Below are positions 601 to 3,676 of a stretch of 37,900 bases of DNA, one piece after another. Each line of letters begins with the position of its first letter. The first letter of the stretch is position 1. Source of the stretch: Clostridia bacterium (lineage in GTDB: Bacteria > Bacillota > Clostridia > Oscillospirales > CAG-272); NCBI GenBank assembly GCA_017545225.1, contig JAFWPR010000031.1, positions 1-37,900 of the forward strand. Direction: 5' to 3'. The notes below the pieces were generated by a model, which was not told the DNA's origin, made no database searches, and worked only from the letters and a program-made list of their open reading frames with translations. The position numbers and the translations under genes were made by a program.

Positions 601-1589
601 TCTTTTCTCGCTTTTTTCTTCGCTTCGCGTTTGAGGCGGCGGGCTTCGCGCCGGCTCTTTTCCTCCGGCGTTTCAACGTTCGTTATCTCTTCGTCCGTGC
701 CGTACGGTCCCGCCGCAACGTTTGCGCGCGCGACGGTAAAGCCTCGCCCGCGGACCTCCTTGATCTGCGTCACCGTGATGAAGGCGAGCGGGTCGCACGA
801 GTGGACCGCCTCGATCGCGTCGTGCATCTTGCGCTGCGATATGACGCAGATGACCGCTTTCTGCTCCTCGCAGAGACGGCCCGTCTCGATCACGGAGAGC
901 GTCACGCCGACTCCGAGGTCGTCGAGCAGTTTCTTCCTTATCGCGTCGTAATACTTTGAGATCACGAAGAGTTCGATCTGAGGTTTGCCGAATATCATCG
1001 CCTTATCGAGAATTATGCTCTCGAGGACGATGACGATGATACCAAGCATCGTCTTTTCCGGCCCGATGAAGATCGCCTGACCGCCGACGACGAGTATATC
1101 CATGAGCCATACGAGCAGAGCCAGCGGAAGGTGGAACACCTTGTGAAAAATCAGATTCAGGACGTCCATGCCGCCTGTCGACGAGCCGACCCGCATGACG
1201 AGTCCGAGCGAAATGCCCGTCAGGACGCCCGCGAAGATCGCGGCGAGCAGAGCGTTGTCCGTCATGTCGTAGATGCCCGGGATCCTCTCGAACACCCACA
1301 TGAACGACGGGAACAGAAACGTGCTCGCGATGGTCGTGAGCGCGAACTTCCGCCCAAGGACGATCCGCCCGAGAATAAGGAGCGCAACGTTCAGTCCGAG
1401 AACTATATACGATACGTCGACGTTCGGCATCAGCCTCTGCAGAACGATGCCGATACCGGTCGTGCCGCCCATGACGATGTCGTGCGGGATGATGAACGCG
1501 ACGACCAAAAAGGCGAGAAGTGCGTTCCCCGCCAGAATACAGAAAGTCGTCACCGCTATTCTTTTCCACCGTTTGTCGTAAGGTCTCAT
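582..1589 (-). CDS. YitT family membrane protein (DUF161/DUF2179)
   Basis: The 335-residue product has the YitT layout: five or so hydrophobic helices in the first 200 residues (starting IAVTTFCILAGNALLAF), a glycine-rich GGTTGIG / GSSTGGMD signature, and a soluble C-terminal DUF2179 domain (GVTLSVIETGRL...AVICVISQRK). The function of the family is not established; it is an integral inner-membrane protein. The start was placed at 1589 because a TTGAAA-N17-TAAAAT promoter at 1630-1658 puts the likely transcript start near 1623, below the two upstream in-frame ATGs (1631, 1718), and GGGAG precedes 1589. The protein ends in a highly charged tail of about 25 residues rich in Lys, Arg and Glu. Confidence 0.9.
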   Translation of the reverse strand: MRPYDKRWKRIAVTTFCILAGNALLAFLVVAFIIPHDIVMGGTTGIGIVLQRLMPNVDVSYIVLGLNVALLILGRIVLGRKFALTTIASTFLFPSFMWVFERIPGIYDMTDNALLAAIFAGVLTGISLGLVMRVGSSTGGMDVLNLIFHKVFHLPLALLVWLMDILVVGGQAIFIGPEKTMLGIIVIVLESIILDKAMIFGKPQIELFVISKYYDAIRKKLLDDLGVGVTLSVIETGRLCEEQKAVICVISQRKMHDAIEAVHSCDPLAFITVTQIKEVRGRGFTVARANVAAGPYGTDEEITNVETPEEKSRREARRLKREAKKKARKEKKTAR

Positions 1590-1629
1590 ACTTTTACCGT
1601 CTCCCGTCGGAACGTCTCTTACGTATAAC

Positions 1630-1658
1630 ATTTTATCAAATATCCGCTCCGTTTTCAA
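1630..1658 (-). promoter_or_regulatory. SigA-type promoter of the YitT gene
   Basis: On the minus strand, TTGAAA (1653-1658) and TAAAAT (1630-1635) are separated by exactly 17 bases. This excludes the longer in-frame starts of the YitT gene. Confidence 0.75.
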
Positions 1659-1746
1659 TAGGATTTCCCAAAGAGACCGGTCGGGACGCCGCGCGGCGCT
1701 TTCCCGGCCCGTTTTCATTCTTTTTCATAAAAATCAACAAAAACTC

Positions 1747-1775
1747 TGTACATGAACCTTATTCTATGATACAAT
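1747..1775 (+). promoter_or_regulatory. Probable promoter of hpf
   Basis: TGTACA (1747-1752, 4 of 6 to consensus) and TACAAT (1770-1775, 5 of 6) are separated by 17 bases in an AT-rich stretch, about 50 bases upstream of the hpf start. No stress-sigma motif was recognised. Confidence 0.55.
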
Positions 1776-1825
1776 ATAACTGTAGGGAGCGTTGTTCCCG
1801 AATTCTCAGTAAAGGTGGTTGAACA

Positions 1826-2353
1826 ATGAACATCTCCGTTATAGGCCGGCACCTGAACGTCAGAGAAGACACGAAGGCCCTGATAGAGAAAAAACTCGCG
1901 AAGTTCGATAAGTTTTTCCCGTCAGGCGCCGACGCCTCGGTAACCTGCAAGAGCGAGGGCGATGAAAAGCGGATGGAGATCACTATATCCGTCGGAGGTA
2001 CCCTGTTCCGCGCCGAGGAGTCAAGCTCGTCGTTCCAGAACGCGCTCGACGGCTGCATGAGCTCGATCGAACGCCAGATCCGCAAGAACAAGACCAGACT
2101 CGAGAAGAAAATGAGGTCTTCGATCGCGGTGCCCGTTGCCGAAAGTTCCGACGTGCCGGCGGAGGAAGAACTCCTCTTCGACGTCAGAACGAAAACCTTC
2201 CCCCTGAAACCGATGACGACCGACGAAGCGATCCTTCAGATGAATCTGCTCGGTCACTCTTTCTACCTCTTCTGCGACTCACAGACCGAGGAGACGTGCG
2301 CGGTCTATAAGAGAAGGGACGGGGCGTACGGCCTCATCGTTCCTCAGAAATAA
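1826..2353 (+). CDS. hpf: Long-form ribosome hibernation promoting factor
   Basis: The 175-residue protein has the two domains of long HPF. The N-terminal RaiA/HPF domain (about 1-100) opens MNISVIGRHLNV and has the family pattern of helix and basic segment (RQIRKNKTRLEKKM). The C-terminal dimerisation domain (about 118-175) contains DEAILQMNLLGHSFYLF and ends YGLIVPQK. Long HPF binds the 30S decoding region and pairs two 70S ribosomes into inactive 100S dimers in stationary phase. AAAGGTGG precedes the ATG. The gene is monocistronic: it has its own promoter and a terminator 13 bases after the stop. Its last 75 bases overlap the convergent SOS-type gene. Confidence 0.97.
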   Translation: MNISVIGRHLNVREDTKALIEKKLAKFDKFFPSGADASVTCKSEGDEKRMEITISVGGTLFRAEESSSSFQNALDGCMSSIERQIRKNKTRLEKKMRSSIAVPVAESSDVPAEEELLFDVRTKTFPLKPMTTDEAILQMNLLGHSFYLFCDSQTEETCAVYKRRDGAYGLIVPQK

Positions 2354-2731
2354 CGCGGAAATTTCAGCCGCGGCTTCACCGCCGCGGCTTTTTTCGTTGT
2401 CAGCGAAATAATAGGCGCAGAAAGAGCCGAGCGCGTCCTTTACCATATCGCGTATCTGTTCCGTCCCGCATCCGATCTTTTCGGCAAGGATCCGCTCGCC
2501 GTCCGGCCGAGTGTCGATAAACGCTCCCTCGAGAAGAACGTACTCCACCGCGGTGAGGCGCAAAAGCGCCGCTTCGACCCGGCGGACGTGCGCCGCCTGC
2601 GTCTTCATCCTCTTTGCGAGTTCCTCCGACGGCTTCTTTTCGGCCATCGCCTTCATAACGACGACCGCCCGTCTTTCGTAGGCGTAGTTTATAAGAGCCG
2701 CCCTTCCCTCTTTCAGTATATTCCCGTCCAT
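2279..2731 (-). CDS. SOS-regulated small protein, possible HTH, function unknown
   Basis: I do not recognise this 150-residue protein. It is mostly helical and basic in its first half. A central block (VEYVLLEGAFIDTRPDGERI, then LAEKIGCGTEQIRDMVKDAL) faintly resembles a sigma region 4 or ArpU/RinA-type helix-turn-helix; this is an impression, not an assignment. The gene is well supported as real: AAAGGGGA sits 8 bases before the ATG, and upstream is an exact TTGACA-N17-TATAAT promoter with two GAAC-N4-GTTC LexA boxes (2755-2768, 2786-2799), so DNA damage should induce it. It converges on hpf and overlaps its last 75 bases. No clear terminator of its own was seen within the window. Alternatives are a DNA-damage checkpoint protein or a prophage-derived regulator. 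Confidence 0.72.
   Translation of the reverse strand: MDGNILKEGRAALINYAYERRAVVVMKAMAEKKPSEELAKRMKTQAAHVRRVEAALLRLTAVEYVLLEGAFIDTRPDGERILAEKIGCGTEQIRDMVKDALGSFCAYYFADNEKSRGGEAAAEISALFLRNDEAVRPVPSLIDRARLLGL
2366..2394 (+). terminator. Terminator of hpf
   Basis: Stem AGCCGCGG (2366-2373) pairs with CCGCGGCT (2382-2389), with an 8-base loop and a run of six T (2389-2394). It lies inside the coding region of the convergent gene at 2279-2731. Confidence 0.85.
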
Positions 2732-2754
2732 TTATTTGTCCCCTTTCACAATGT

Positions 2755-2768
2755 CGAACATATGTTCG
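2755..2768. promoter_or_regulatory. LexA (SOS) box 1
   Basis: The sequence CGAACATATGTTCG is a perfect 14-base palindrome and matches the Gram-positive LexA/DinR consensus CGAAC-N4-GTTCG. It overlaps about +1 to +14 of the minus-strand transcript. Confidence 0.88.
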
Positions 2769-2775
2769 TTTTATG

Positions 2776-2804
2776 ATTATAGCACCGAACATTTGTTCTG
2801 TCAA
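2776..2804 (-). promoter_or_regulatory. Exact-consensus promoter of the SOS-type gene
   Basis: TTGACA (2799-2804) and TATAAT (2776-2781) are separated by 17 bases on the minus strand, with an extended -10 TG (TGCTATAAT). The spacer contains one LexA box and the other covers the likely transcript start. This is a strong promoter that should be tightly repressed. Confidence 0.88.
2786..2799. promoter_or_regulatory. LexA (SOS) box 2
   Basis: CGAACATTTGTTCT keeps the GAAC-N4-GTTC core and lies in the spacer between the -35 and -10 of the minus-strand promoter. Its centre is 31 bp from box 1, roughly three helical turns, so two LexA dimers could sit on the same DNA face. Confidence 0.85.
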
Positions 2805-2826: not shown

Positions 2827-2855
2827 TTGAAAATTCGGCGTCCTTGTGATAGAAT
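2827..2855 (+). promoter_or_regulatory. Promoter of the PHP phosphatase operon
   Basis: TTGAAA (2827-2832), 17-base spacer, TAGAAT (2850-2855). The start of transcription near 2862 excludes the GTG at 2846 as a start codon and supports the TTG at 2891. The -35 box is only 22 bases from the -35 of the divergent SOS promoter. Confidence 0.75.
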
Positions 2856-2890
2856 TATACGGAACGAAAACGAAAGACGAGGAATCACCC

Positions 2891-3676
2891 TTGGAGCCCC
2901 TTATAACGGCGAATTACCACACTCACTCGAAATACTGCAGACACGCTTCCGGCGAGGCGGAGGACTACGCGAACGCCGCTGTCGAAGCAGGCCTTGAGGT
3001 GCTCGGTTTCAGCGACCACACGCCGTATCCCTTCCCCGACGGATACTACAGCGGTTTCAGAATGTTCCCGCGGGAAATGAAAGACTATATCGCGGACGTC
3101 CGGCGCTGCAGAGAGAAGTTCGGGGACAAACTCGAGATAAAGCTCGGATATGAGGTCGAATACTACCCGCGCCACTTCGGAGCGCTCATCAAAACGCTTG
3201 CGGAGTCCGGGTACGATTATCTGATCCTCGGCCAGCACTTCACGAAAAACGAATACGACGGCGAGTACTCGGGCGAGGAAAGCAGCAGCACGGAAAAACT
3301 GAAAACGTACGTCGATCAGGTCTCCGAGGCGATGGAAACGGGGCTATTCTCCTGTCTCTGCCATCCGGAACTGATACACTTCTCGGGACCGGATGAGATC
3401 TATGAGGAACATATGACGCGTCTTGTCGAGGTCGCGGTAAAGACAGATACCCCGCTTGAGATAAACCTGCGCGGGCTGAAATTCGGAGCCCAGTACCCTG
3501 ACGAGAGGTTTCTCGATATCGCCGCGCCGCTCGGAGCAAAGTTCATCATCGGAGTCGACGCGCACGATCCCGACGATCTTATCCCGGCAGAAGAACATGA
3601 AAAGGCGCTCGAACTCGCGGGGAAGCACGGTCTATGCCTTCTCGAACGCATGGAACTTAAAAAGCCCGCCGTATGA
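2891..3676 (+). CDS. PHP-domain phosphatase, histidinol-phosphatase (HisJ/HisK) type
   Basis: The 261-residue protein is a PHP-fold metal-dependent phosphoesterase. The metal ligands of the family are visible: YHTHSKYC at about residue 10, GFSDHTPYPFP at about 42, a Glu in GYEVEYY, LGQHF, LCHPE and GVDAHDP near the C-terminus. Length and motifs match monofunctional histidinol-phosphatase (last phosphatase step of histidine synthesis), but no other his gene is nearby, so the substrate is uncertain. I chose the TTG at 2891 because GAGGAA lies 7-8 bases before it and the promoter falls at 2827-2855; an upstream GTG (2846) is in frame but precedes the likely transcript start. It heads a three-gene operon, 22 bases from the next gene. 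Confidence 0.88.
   Translation: MEPLITANYHTHSKYCRHASGEAEDYANAAVEAGLEVLGFSDHTPYPFPDGYYSGFRMFPREMKDYIADVRRCREKFGDKLEIKLGYEVEYYPRHFGALIKTLAESGYDYLILGQHFTKNEYDGEYSGEESSSTEKLKTYVDQVSEAMETGLFSCLCHPELIHFSGPDEIYEEHMTRLVEVAVKTDTPLEINLRGLKFGAQYPDERFLDIAAPLGAKFIIGVDAHDPDDLIPAEEHEKALELAGKHGLCLLERMELKKPAV

What the first reader, a model, noticed from the sequence alone, without database searches (positions are those of the whole stretch)
2279..2804. Exact-consensus promoter gated by two LexA boxes drives an unrecognised 150-residue protein
The sequence shows TTGACA-N17-TATAAT with one GAAC-N4-GTTC box in the spacer and a perfect 14-base palindromic box over the start of transcription. LexA of Gram-positive bacteria is known to bind this motif. 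A strong promoter with double occlusion is the design of genes that are silent until damage, such as division inhibitors or toxins. The protein has no family I recognise, only a faint sigma region 4/HTH resemblance, so a new SOS effector is possible.
Basis: partly seen in the sequence, partly recalled or inferred. Interest (0 to 1): 0.8.

Follow-up and report, generated by a model that had tools for sequence, protein, structure and literature searches.

The report
SOS-switched relic of a phage regulator
A gut bacterium has kept a DNA-damage-controlled switch and one regulator gene from an old captured virus-like particle system that several close relatives still carry, which suggests that in these bacteria the alarm for broken DNA may also control a virus-like packaging machine.

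Summary
On the minus strand an exact TTGACA-N17-TATAAT promoter carries a GAAC-N4-GTTC box in its spacer and a perfect 14-base box at the expected start of transcription. The same double-box promoter precedes the orthologue in 11 of 12 genomes of the genus, although the proteins share as little as 19% identity. lexA carries a matching operator in 9 of 10 loci printed.

The protein is no obvious toxin. Its family has a sigma-region-4 helix-turn-helix, and a homologue resembles phage transcription activators. In 7 of 12 species the promoter is followed by a 10-13 kb operon: zinc-ribbon-like protein, this regulator, terminase, portal, P22-like coat, tail proteins, amidase. It is single-copy, with no PF00589 integrase on its contigs: GTA-like. 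G006 carries it at the window's site.

In the window's species the packaging genes are gone. The solo gene is under purifying selection (dN/dS 0.19-0.36); its last ~38 residues are read-through into antisense hpf.

Sister groups have LexA-like boxes on both regulator and structural promoters. LexA binding, induction and packaging are untested.

The parts
2776..2804 (-). promoter: TTGACA (2804-2799), 17-nt spacer, TATAAT (2781-2776), TG before the -10
   Evidence: 12 of 12 consensus positions; hexamers invariant across 11 species
2787..2798 (.). LexA-type box 1, GAACAAATGTTC on the minus strand, inside the promoter spacer
   Evidence: conserved
2755..2768 (.). LexA-type box 2, perfect palindrome CGAACATATGTTCG over about +1 to +14
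   Evidence: conserved
2740..2746 (-). Shine-Dalgarno-like AAAGGGG, 8 nt before the ATG
   Evidence: read from the sequence
2396..2731 (-). core of the regulator (codons 1-112): N-terminal helices plus sigma-region-4-like helix-turn-helix; under purifying selection
   Evidence: alignment; sigma region 4 profile match; dN/dS; pLDDT 80-93 per 10-residue block to residue 110
2279..2395 (-). C-terminal tail (codons 113-150) made by read-through into the hpf terminator and antisense hpf; low model confidence
   Evidence: absent from the element-linked homologues aligned and from G007; residues 114-143 pLDDT < 50
2366..2389 (+). intrinsic-terminator-like hairpin behind hpf, inside the solo ORF
1826..2353 (+). 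hpf-like gene (name recalled): conserved neighbour that marks the site; converges with and overlaps the solo ORF
2846..3676 (+). PHP-type phosphoesterase gene (name recalled; start codon uncertain), divergent neighbour on the promoter side; same neighbour in G003, G006 and G007

Best explanation
This is a LexA-repressed promoter driving the last retained gene of a domesticated, GTA-like phage element. The protein is a small sigma-region-4-like regulator of the RinA/ArpU type. In relatives it is encoded just upstream of the terminase genes and is expected to switch on head, packaging and lysis genes once LexA is cleaved after DNA damage. In the window's lineage the zinc-ribbon gene before it and the packaging genes after it were lost. 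The loss fused the regulator's end to the hpf terminator region, leaving a solo gene that is still selected and should still be made in the SOS response. Most likely it now acts as an SOS-induced DNA- or RNA-polymerase-binding regulator of unknown targets. Shown by sequence: promoter and boxes, their conservation, homology, operon context, shared locus, absence of the packaging genes from the held genomes, purifying selection. Inferred: direction of the change (loss), LexA binding, SOS induction, activator function, DNA packaging by the relatives, present target.
For: Double-box promoter in 11 of 12 genus genomes. Seven of these continue into zinc-ribbon-like protein, regulator, TerS and TerL; portal, P22-like coat, Dit, Gp37-like tail protein, holin and amidase were identified by profiles in representative elements. 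In G006 the element lies between the PHP and hpf genes, where the window has the solo gene; the G011 contig shows only the hpf side. TerL and coat protein were not found in G000, G001, G003 and G007. The family profile matches sigma region 4, and the G006 homologue matches phrog_36 and phrog_248. dN/dS for codons 1-111: 0.19 (0.09-0.43) G000/G003, 0.36 (0.21-0.56) G000/G001, 0.33 (0.20-0.52) G003/G001. These three share the same fused tail, so the divergence postdates the loss. lexA matches in 12 of 12 genomes; 9 of 10 lexA loci printed show GAAC-N4-GTTTAC upstream. In genus g41, 10 of the 13 regulator loci among the best 30 matches have a box with at most one mismatch at their promoter. Of 12 sister-group terS promoters examined, 11 have such a box within 60 bases of the -35 and 9 have upstream iterons, against 1.3% of random 45-mers.
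Against: The window protein itself matches no family credibly, and the G006 and G004 homologues have no meaningful Pfam match. The motif S-T/S-x-Y-R/K of the presumed recognition helix, present in 11 of 12 element-linked copies aligned, is lost in all four solo copies, so DNA binding may have changed or gone. No late promoter of the sister-group type was found in any of the 12 genus genomes, so no target is known. Capsid identities correlate only weakly with host identities (r about 0.40 for six genomes), so some horizontal movement is possible. In g41, 3 of 13 regulator loci show no box, one of them cut by a contig end.
Confidence: 0.72

Rival explanations
1. A dying remnant: promoter and ORF persist from the lost element but no longer do anything useful.
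For: Packaging genes not found and no zinc-ribbon ORF before the four solo copies; presumed recognition-helix motif lost in all four solo copies; protein evolves fast (69% identity to G001 while hpf is 95%).
Against: dN/dS upper bounds 0.43 to 0.56 for divergence after the loss; ORF open in four species; -35, -10 and the GAAC/GTTC half-sites of both boxes unchanged in the same four species.
Confidence: 0.2
2. The seven intact copies are ordinary, still mobile prophages or capsid-forming satellite islands, and the window holds a prophage or satellite scar rather than part of a domesticated system.
For: Coat relatives occur on IMG/VR viral contigs of up to about 52 kb (completeness not checked), and a TerL relative in a complete chromosome (L139) has a PF00589 integrase about 2 kb from it; weak correlation of capsid and host distances; element sites differ between the two clades of the genus.
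Against: One coat copy per carrier genome: 7 of 12, 16 of 25 and 7 of 9 genomes in three genera; no PF00589 integrase on any of the seven element contigs (serine recombinases not searched); all seven genus TerLs form one clade (100/99); same PHP-hpf site in G006 as in the window and G003.
Confidence: 0.25
3. A new SOS effector, such as a toxin or division inhibitor.
For: Tight double LexA-type control; no credible family match for the window protein; motif lost in solo copies leaves room for a new role.
Against: Homology to a phage regulator with a sigma-region-4-like domain; no transmembrane or secretion features seen by eye (no predictor was run).
Confidence: 0.07
4. The useful product is the transcript: SOS induction sends a minus-strand RNA across the 3' end of hpf and lowers hpf expression.
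For: The ORF overlaps hpf by 75 nt in the window, and the same fused tail is present in G003 and G001; on the minus strand the hpf terminator hairpin is not followed by a T run (sequence; not listed as a minus-strand terminator).
Against: The coding part is under amino-acid-level selection; in G007 the solo gene has its own stop codon before any hpf overlap.
Confidence: 0.08

Closest known systems
Late transcriptional regulators of Firmicutes phages (RinA, ArpU, Ltr; names for phrog_36 and phrog_248 recalled)
   Same: Small helical protein of 106-135 aa encoded just before the terminase genes in seven relatives; weak profile match of the G006 homologue to phrog_36 and phrog_248. Ltr of phage phi13 acts at a promoter with direct repeats upstream of the late genes (passages of PMC13123087), like the iterons.
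   Different: In phi13 the regulator belongs to a phage released from CI-type control; here it is first or second behind a LexA-type promoter. The window copy has no phage genes and a changed recognition helix.
FpGTA, the GTA-like element of Faecalibacterium (PMC12946183; abstract, passages and sections 9, 10 and 26 seen)
   Same: GTA-like element of gut Ruminococcaceae; TerS, TerL, portal, scaffold, coat, holin and endolysin; no replication genes; one 10.5-kb and one 5.5-kb operon.
   Different: FpGTA is split in two operons and thought to be podovirus-like; the main text does not mention LexA, though its Discussion says in general, citing other work, that GTAs are inducible through the SOS response. 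Homology between FpGTA and this element was not tested: I had no way to fetch its sequence by name in the collections open here.
Phages that use the host LexA as repressor (GIL01 of Bacillus thuringiensis; PMC4551915, start of abstract)
   Same: LexA boxes directly on a phage promoter.
   Different: GIL01 is a temperate phage that does not integrate (listing); here the target is a short chromosomal element or a lone regulator.
Alphaproteobacterial GTAs with predicted LexA sites (Dinoroseobacter shibae, PMC6473078, passages)
   Same: A LexA site predicted at a GTA gene cluster.
   Different: Unrelated bacteria and GTA lineage; quorum sensing, CtrA and GafA are the regulators discussed; the LexA sites are in silico predictions.

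Membership tests
LexA (SOS) regulon of Gram-positive bacteria | GAAC-N4-GTTC operator overlapping the promoter | tested here: met
   two exact boxes on a 12/12 promoter
LexA (SOS) regulon of Gram-positive bacteria | operator conserved before orthologues | tested here: met
   11 of 12 genus genomes; at least one exact box at 11 of 11 genus regulator loci, and at most one mismatch at 10 of 13 loci of genus g41
LexA (SOS) regulon of Gram-positive bacteria | a LexA of matching specificity in the genome | tested here: met
   TIGR00498 over cut-off in 12 of 12; CGAACATCTGTTTA before lexA in G000; specificity itself inferred
LexA (SOS) regulon of Gram-positive bacteria | LexA binds and transcript rises after DNA damage | not testable with these tools
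   needs a bench experiment
RinA/ArpU-type late regulators | profile match | tested here: inconclusive
   G006 homologue: phrog_36 7.7e-6, phrog_248 2.4e-5; window protein: none; no Pfam match of G006 homologue
RinA/ArpU-type late regulators | gene directly upstream of terminase genes | tested here: not met
   met in 7 relatives, but no terminase was found in the window's genome
RinA/ArpU-type late regulators | sigma-region-4-like helix-turn-helix | tested here: met
   profile A5 against solved structures, best four matches E 9e-5 to 2e-4, all sigma factors; all-helical model, pLDDT 80-93 per block for residues 1-110; fold comparison could not be run
Gene transfer agent | head and packaging genes without replication or integration genes | tested here: inconclusive
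   window locus: no such genes. Seven relatives: head, packaging and lysis genes, no PF00589 on their contigs; serine recombinases not searched by profile; not every element ORF was scanned
Gene transfer agent | vertical inheritance at a fixed locus, one copy | tested here: inconclusive
   single copy in 7/12, 16/25, 7/9 genomes; one TerL clade for the genus; at least two different sites within the genus; capsid-host correlation 0.40
Gene transfer agent | packages random host DNA | not testable with these tools
   no particle data
FpGTA | homology of TerL and coat protein to FpGTA | not tested
   FpGTA sequence not obtained

The most novel reading that the evidence does not exclude
A lineage of gut Clostridia carries a GTA whose production is switched directly by LexA in a feed-forward loop: LexA represses both a sigma-4-like activator module and the packaging operon that it activates, tying DNA damage to capsid-mediated DNA release. 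In one sub-lineage the activator outlived the particle and became a free-standing SOS regulator.
Probability: 0.35. Interest if true: 0.85.

Novelty: new variant of a known kind. Interest (0 to 1): 0.6.

Why it matters
GTA-like packaging was reported in gut Ruminococcaceae and Oscillospiraceae in 2026 (PMC12946183); that paper notes in general that GTAs can be SOS-inducible but does not mention LexA. If the elements described here are GTAs, this gives a concrete sequence-level switch: LexA-type boxes on the activator and on the packaging operon. It predicts that DNA-damaging drugs would trigger DNA packaging and release in rumen and gut Clostridia. The solo gene is a clean natural case of a phage regulator that outlived its phage genes under selection, with a deletion junction shared by three species.

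Tried and rejected
Window protein against Pfam, PHROGs and NCBIfam: only weak, unrelated matches (Amidase_3 E 0.01, endolysin 0.13, anhydro-MurNAc kinase 0.048), rejected as chance; none fits the context.

Regex search for integrases in 80 loci found none, even in L139, where the profile search places one; so it has no value.

Search for the sister-group late-promoter motif in the 12 genus genomes: 0 of 12, up to 3 mismatches. This removed the simplest idea for the solo protein's target.

Correlation of capsid and host identity as a proof of vertical descent: r 0.40, six genomes, 15 pairs (capsid with lexA 0.35), not convincing. In that script G001 hpf was picked in the wrong frame (G001 has no capsid and did not enter the correlation) and G011 dropped out for want of a picked hpf ORF.

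Tree of 70 TerL rows: 10 of the 80 loci were dropped because no ORF passed my filter. The LexA label was set by me on 15 loci, including L094, L098 and L105, whose boxes have a mismatch or lie on the separate regulator module. L106 and L108, which have an exact box upstream, were left unlabelled, and L116, also with exact boxes, is not in the tree. So the clustering is indicative only.

The 12 terS promoters were chosen from L092-L107 (L103, L104 and L106 not examined; L093 belongs to the window's genus).

Fold comparison of the model with PDB or viral structures: never accepted by the machine.

Full report
OBSERVATION. The described promoter is real. On the minus strand TTGACA (2804-2799) and TATAAT (2781-2776) are 17 nt apart and match the consensus at 12 of 12 positions. 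One GAAC-N4-GTTC box lies in the spacer (2787-2798) and a perfect 14-base palindrome at 2755-2768, over the expected start of transcription. The ORF runs 2731-2279. The number of boxes in the window alone is not improbable, but their placement and conservation are. A pattern built from the promoter and its spacer box, with up to 2 mismatches, occurs in 11 of 12 genomes of the genus with 0 control matches. Its 18 matches comprise 11 regulator-linked sites, one per genome (0-1 mismatch), and 7 others without the regulator behind them. Across the 11 species both hexamers and the box half-sites are invariant or nearly so, while the proteins behind them are down to 19% identical to the window's. 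The twelfth genome, G002, is 55% complete.

IS IT A LexA SITE. All 12 genomes have a LexA match above the curated cut-off. Of the ten canonical lexA loci, nine show GAAC-N4-GTTTAC in the printed upstream stretch; the tenth (L170) has one single-mismatch site whose position was not printed. The G008 hits are partial and were not inspected; in G007 (80% complete) only a second paralogue was found. The literature gives GAACN4GTTC for B. subtilis and lists GAAC-N4-GTTT/C boxes for C. difficile (passages of PMC4234289). In the window's genome CGAAC-N4-GTTYR has 31 matches (both strands; palindromic sites count twice) against 10 for the reversed control. Of the 21 loci fetched for them, my filter kept three with a promoter-like context: this gene, lexA, and an unknown 191-aa ORF on contig C93.

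WHAT THE PROTEIN IS. The window protein alone has no credible family match. Its context in seven other species is informative. In G004, G005, G006, G008, G009, G010 and G011 the same promoter is followed by a small protein with CxxC motifs (zinc-ribbon-like; Pfam Zn_Ribbon_TF only at E 0.005, below its cut-off), then the homologue of the window protein, then TerS and TerL. The operon spans about 10-13 kb from promoter to amidase. Profiles on representative elements identify TerS, TerL, portal, P22-type coat protein (PF11651), head-tail adaptor, minor head protein, Dit, Gp37-like tail protein (PF14594), holin and amidase. The G006 regulator matches phrog_36 (transcriptional regulator, 7.7e-6) and phrog_248 (transcriptional activator, 2.4e-5); that these are the RinA/ArpU families is recalled. 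A profile of 16 homologues matches sigma region 4 in solved structures, the best four at E 9e-5 to 2e-4. In 395 family genomes it also gives many weak matches at positions 51-106 inside ORFs of about 260-300 aa, as expected for sigma factors (inferred from length). AlphaFold gives an all-helical core with per-block pLDDT 80-93 for residues 1-110, with helices 61-72, 78-86 and 90-115 in the helix-turn-helix region; residues 114-143 are below 50. Fold comparison could not be run.

HOW THE WINDOW LOCUS AROSE. In G006 the element lies between the PHP gene and a P-type ATPase (by eye) plus hpf. In the window and in G003 the solo gene lies between the same PHP and hpf genes. G011 and G001 show the hpf side, G007 the PHP side. 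In G007 the contig with the solo gene and the contig with hpf share an exact 91-base end overlap, which suggests but does not prove adjacency. TerL and coat protein were not found in G000, G001, G003 and G007 (completeness 87, 96, 96 and 80%), nor in G002. The C-terminal ~38 residues are absent from the element-linked homologues aligned and from G007, and correspond to the hpf terminator and antisense hpf. G000, G003 and G001 share exactly this fused tail, so the change predates their split. Since then codons 1-111 have evolved with dN/dS 0.19 (95% bootstrap 0.09-0.43), 0.36 (0.21-0.56) and 0.33 (0.20-0.52). The gene has therefore been kept for its protein after the phage genes were lost. That the intact element is ancestral is inferred from its presence in both clades of the genus. 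Against a simple carry-over of function, the S-T/S-x-Y-R/K motif found in 11 of 12 element-linked copies aligned is lost in all four solo copies.

WIDER CONTEXT. The coat protein was found in 27 of 395 family genomes, 4 of 71 genera, one match each. By genus: 7 of 12 in the window's genus, 16 of 25 in g41 and 7 of 9 in g85. Of 89 TerL relatives in named genomes the best 80 were kept; the nearest 22 (L086-L107) are all MAGs, many labelled as from ruminant or other animal guts. An exact box lies within 3 kb upstream of TerL in 15 of the 80 loci, 12 of them among L086-L102, the others L106, L108 and L116. In the TerL tree of 70 rows the 15 loci that I labelled as LexA-linked fall in one supported clade of 19 (98/93); the labelling caveats are in Tried and rejected. 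In genus g41 the zinc-ribbon-like/regulator module can be a separate unit, and in L094, L101 and L105 it is divergent from a PHP-type ORF (judged by eye). Of 12 g41 genomes with both a strong regulator hit and a coat hit, 6 have them on different draft contigs. Ten of 13 g41 regulator loci among the best 30 matches carry a box with at most one mismatch (5 exact) at a TTGACA-N17-TATAAT-type promoter; L223 and L224 do not, and L217 is cut by the contig start (several of these loci are the same records as L094, L098, L101 and L105). Twelve sister-group terS promoters examined have a poor -35 (TGACA or CGACA), upstream GG(G/A)AAAA iterons in 9 of 12 (random 45-mers 1.3%), and a box with at most one mismatch within 60 bases in 11 of 12, exact in 4. 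This is the layout of an activator-dependent promoter also blocked by LexA. Late activators at promoters with direct repeats are known (PMC13123087, passages). None of the 12 genus genomes has this promoter type.

DOMESTICATED OR MOBILE. For domestication: single copy, high prevalence, no PF00589 integrase on the seven element contigs, short gene set, one TerL clade for the genus, shared site in G006 and the solo species. Against: at least two chromosomal sites within the genus, weak capsid-host correlation, coat relatives on IMG/VR viral contigs of up to about 52 kb, and an integrase near one distant TerL relative (L139). Coat matches in 108 phage records are all under 60% identity, the best of the 20 listed 39.4%. 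I file the intact elements as GTA-like, not as GTAs.

COMPARISON AND NOVELTY. FpGTA of Faecalibacterium is the nearest published system that I found in this group of bacteria (PMC12946183; abstract, passages and sections 9, 10 and 26 seen). Its main text contains no mention of LexA; its Discussion says in general, citing other work, that GTAs are SOS-inducible. Homology was not tested. Searches of the held library for gene transfer agent with LexA and Clostridia returned one genome paper on Brachyspira. With LexA and SOS they returned 26 papers, 12 listed, several of them on alphaproteobacterial GTAs, including in silico LexA sites at the D. shibae GTA cluster. Direct LexA control of a phage is known from GIL01 (start of abstract). 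So each piece has a precedent. The combination, a LexA-gated activator for a GTA-like element in Clostridia and its survival as a solo selected gene, I did not find in those searches.

Noticed in passing
L177, L178, L179, L180 (G007, G001, G003, G000): A second LexA paralogue with its own box (GGAACAATTGTTCC in three, GGAACAAAAGTTCC in G007) near the start of transcription is seen in the four solo species (in G007 it is the only LexA found). Among the eight others only G008 has two LexA hits, both partial.
   Followed up: partly
L197 about 1455-2087 (reverse complement), contig C93 of the window genome: Another promoter with a LexA-like box (CGAACGAATGTTTG) just downstream of the -10, before an unknown 191-aa ORF.
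   Followed up: no
L227, L229, L230 upstream of the regulator ORFs: Three more distant regulator homologues of one other genus have a promoter whose spacer is a different palindrome-like sequence (TTCCGAAATTTCGGAA type), suggesting a different repressor in the same position.
   Followed up: no
L031 and L033 (G004): Two near-identical promoters TTTACAGAACGRTTGTTCTGTGATACAAT on different contigs; a repeated, possibly mobile, LexA-box promoter.
   Followed up: no
L014 end and L015 start (G007 contigs C16 and C73): Both contig ends carry the same 91-base stretch, with a short GTTACCC-type inverted repeat nearby, between the solo gene and hpf.
   Followed up: partly
L036 upstream of the promoter (G005): In G005 the element lies next to an rnpA/yidD/yidC/jag gene block (names by eye); in G008 and G009 it lies next to an RluD-like pseudouridine synthase, with yidC/jag also near it in G008.
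   Followed up: partly
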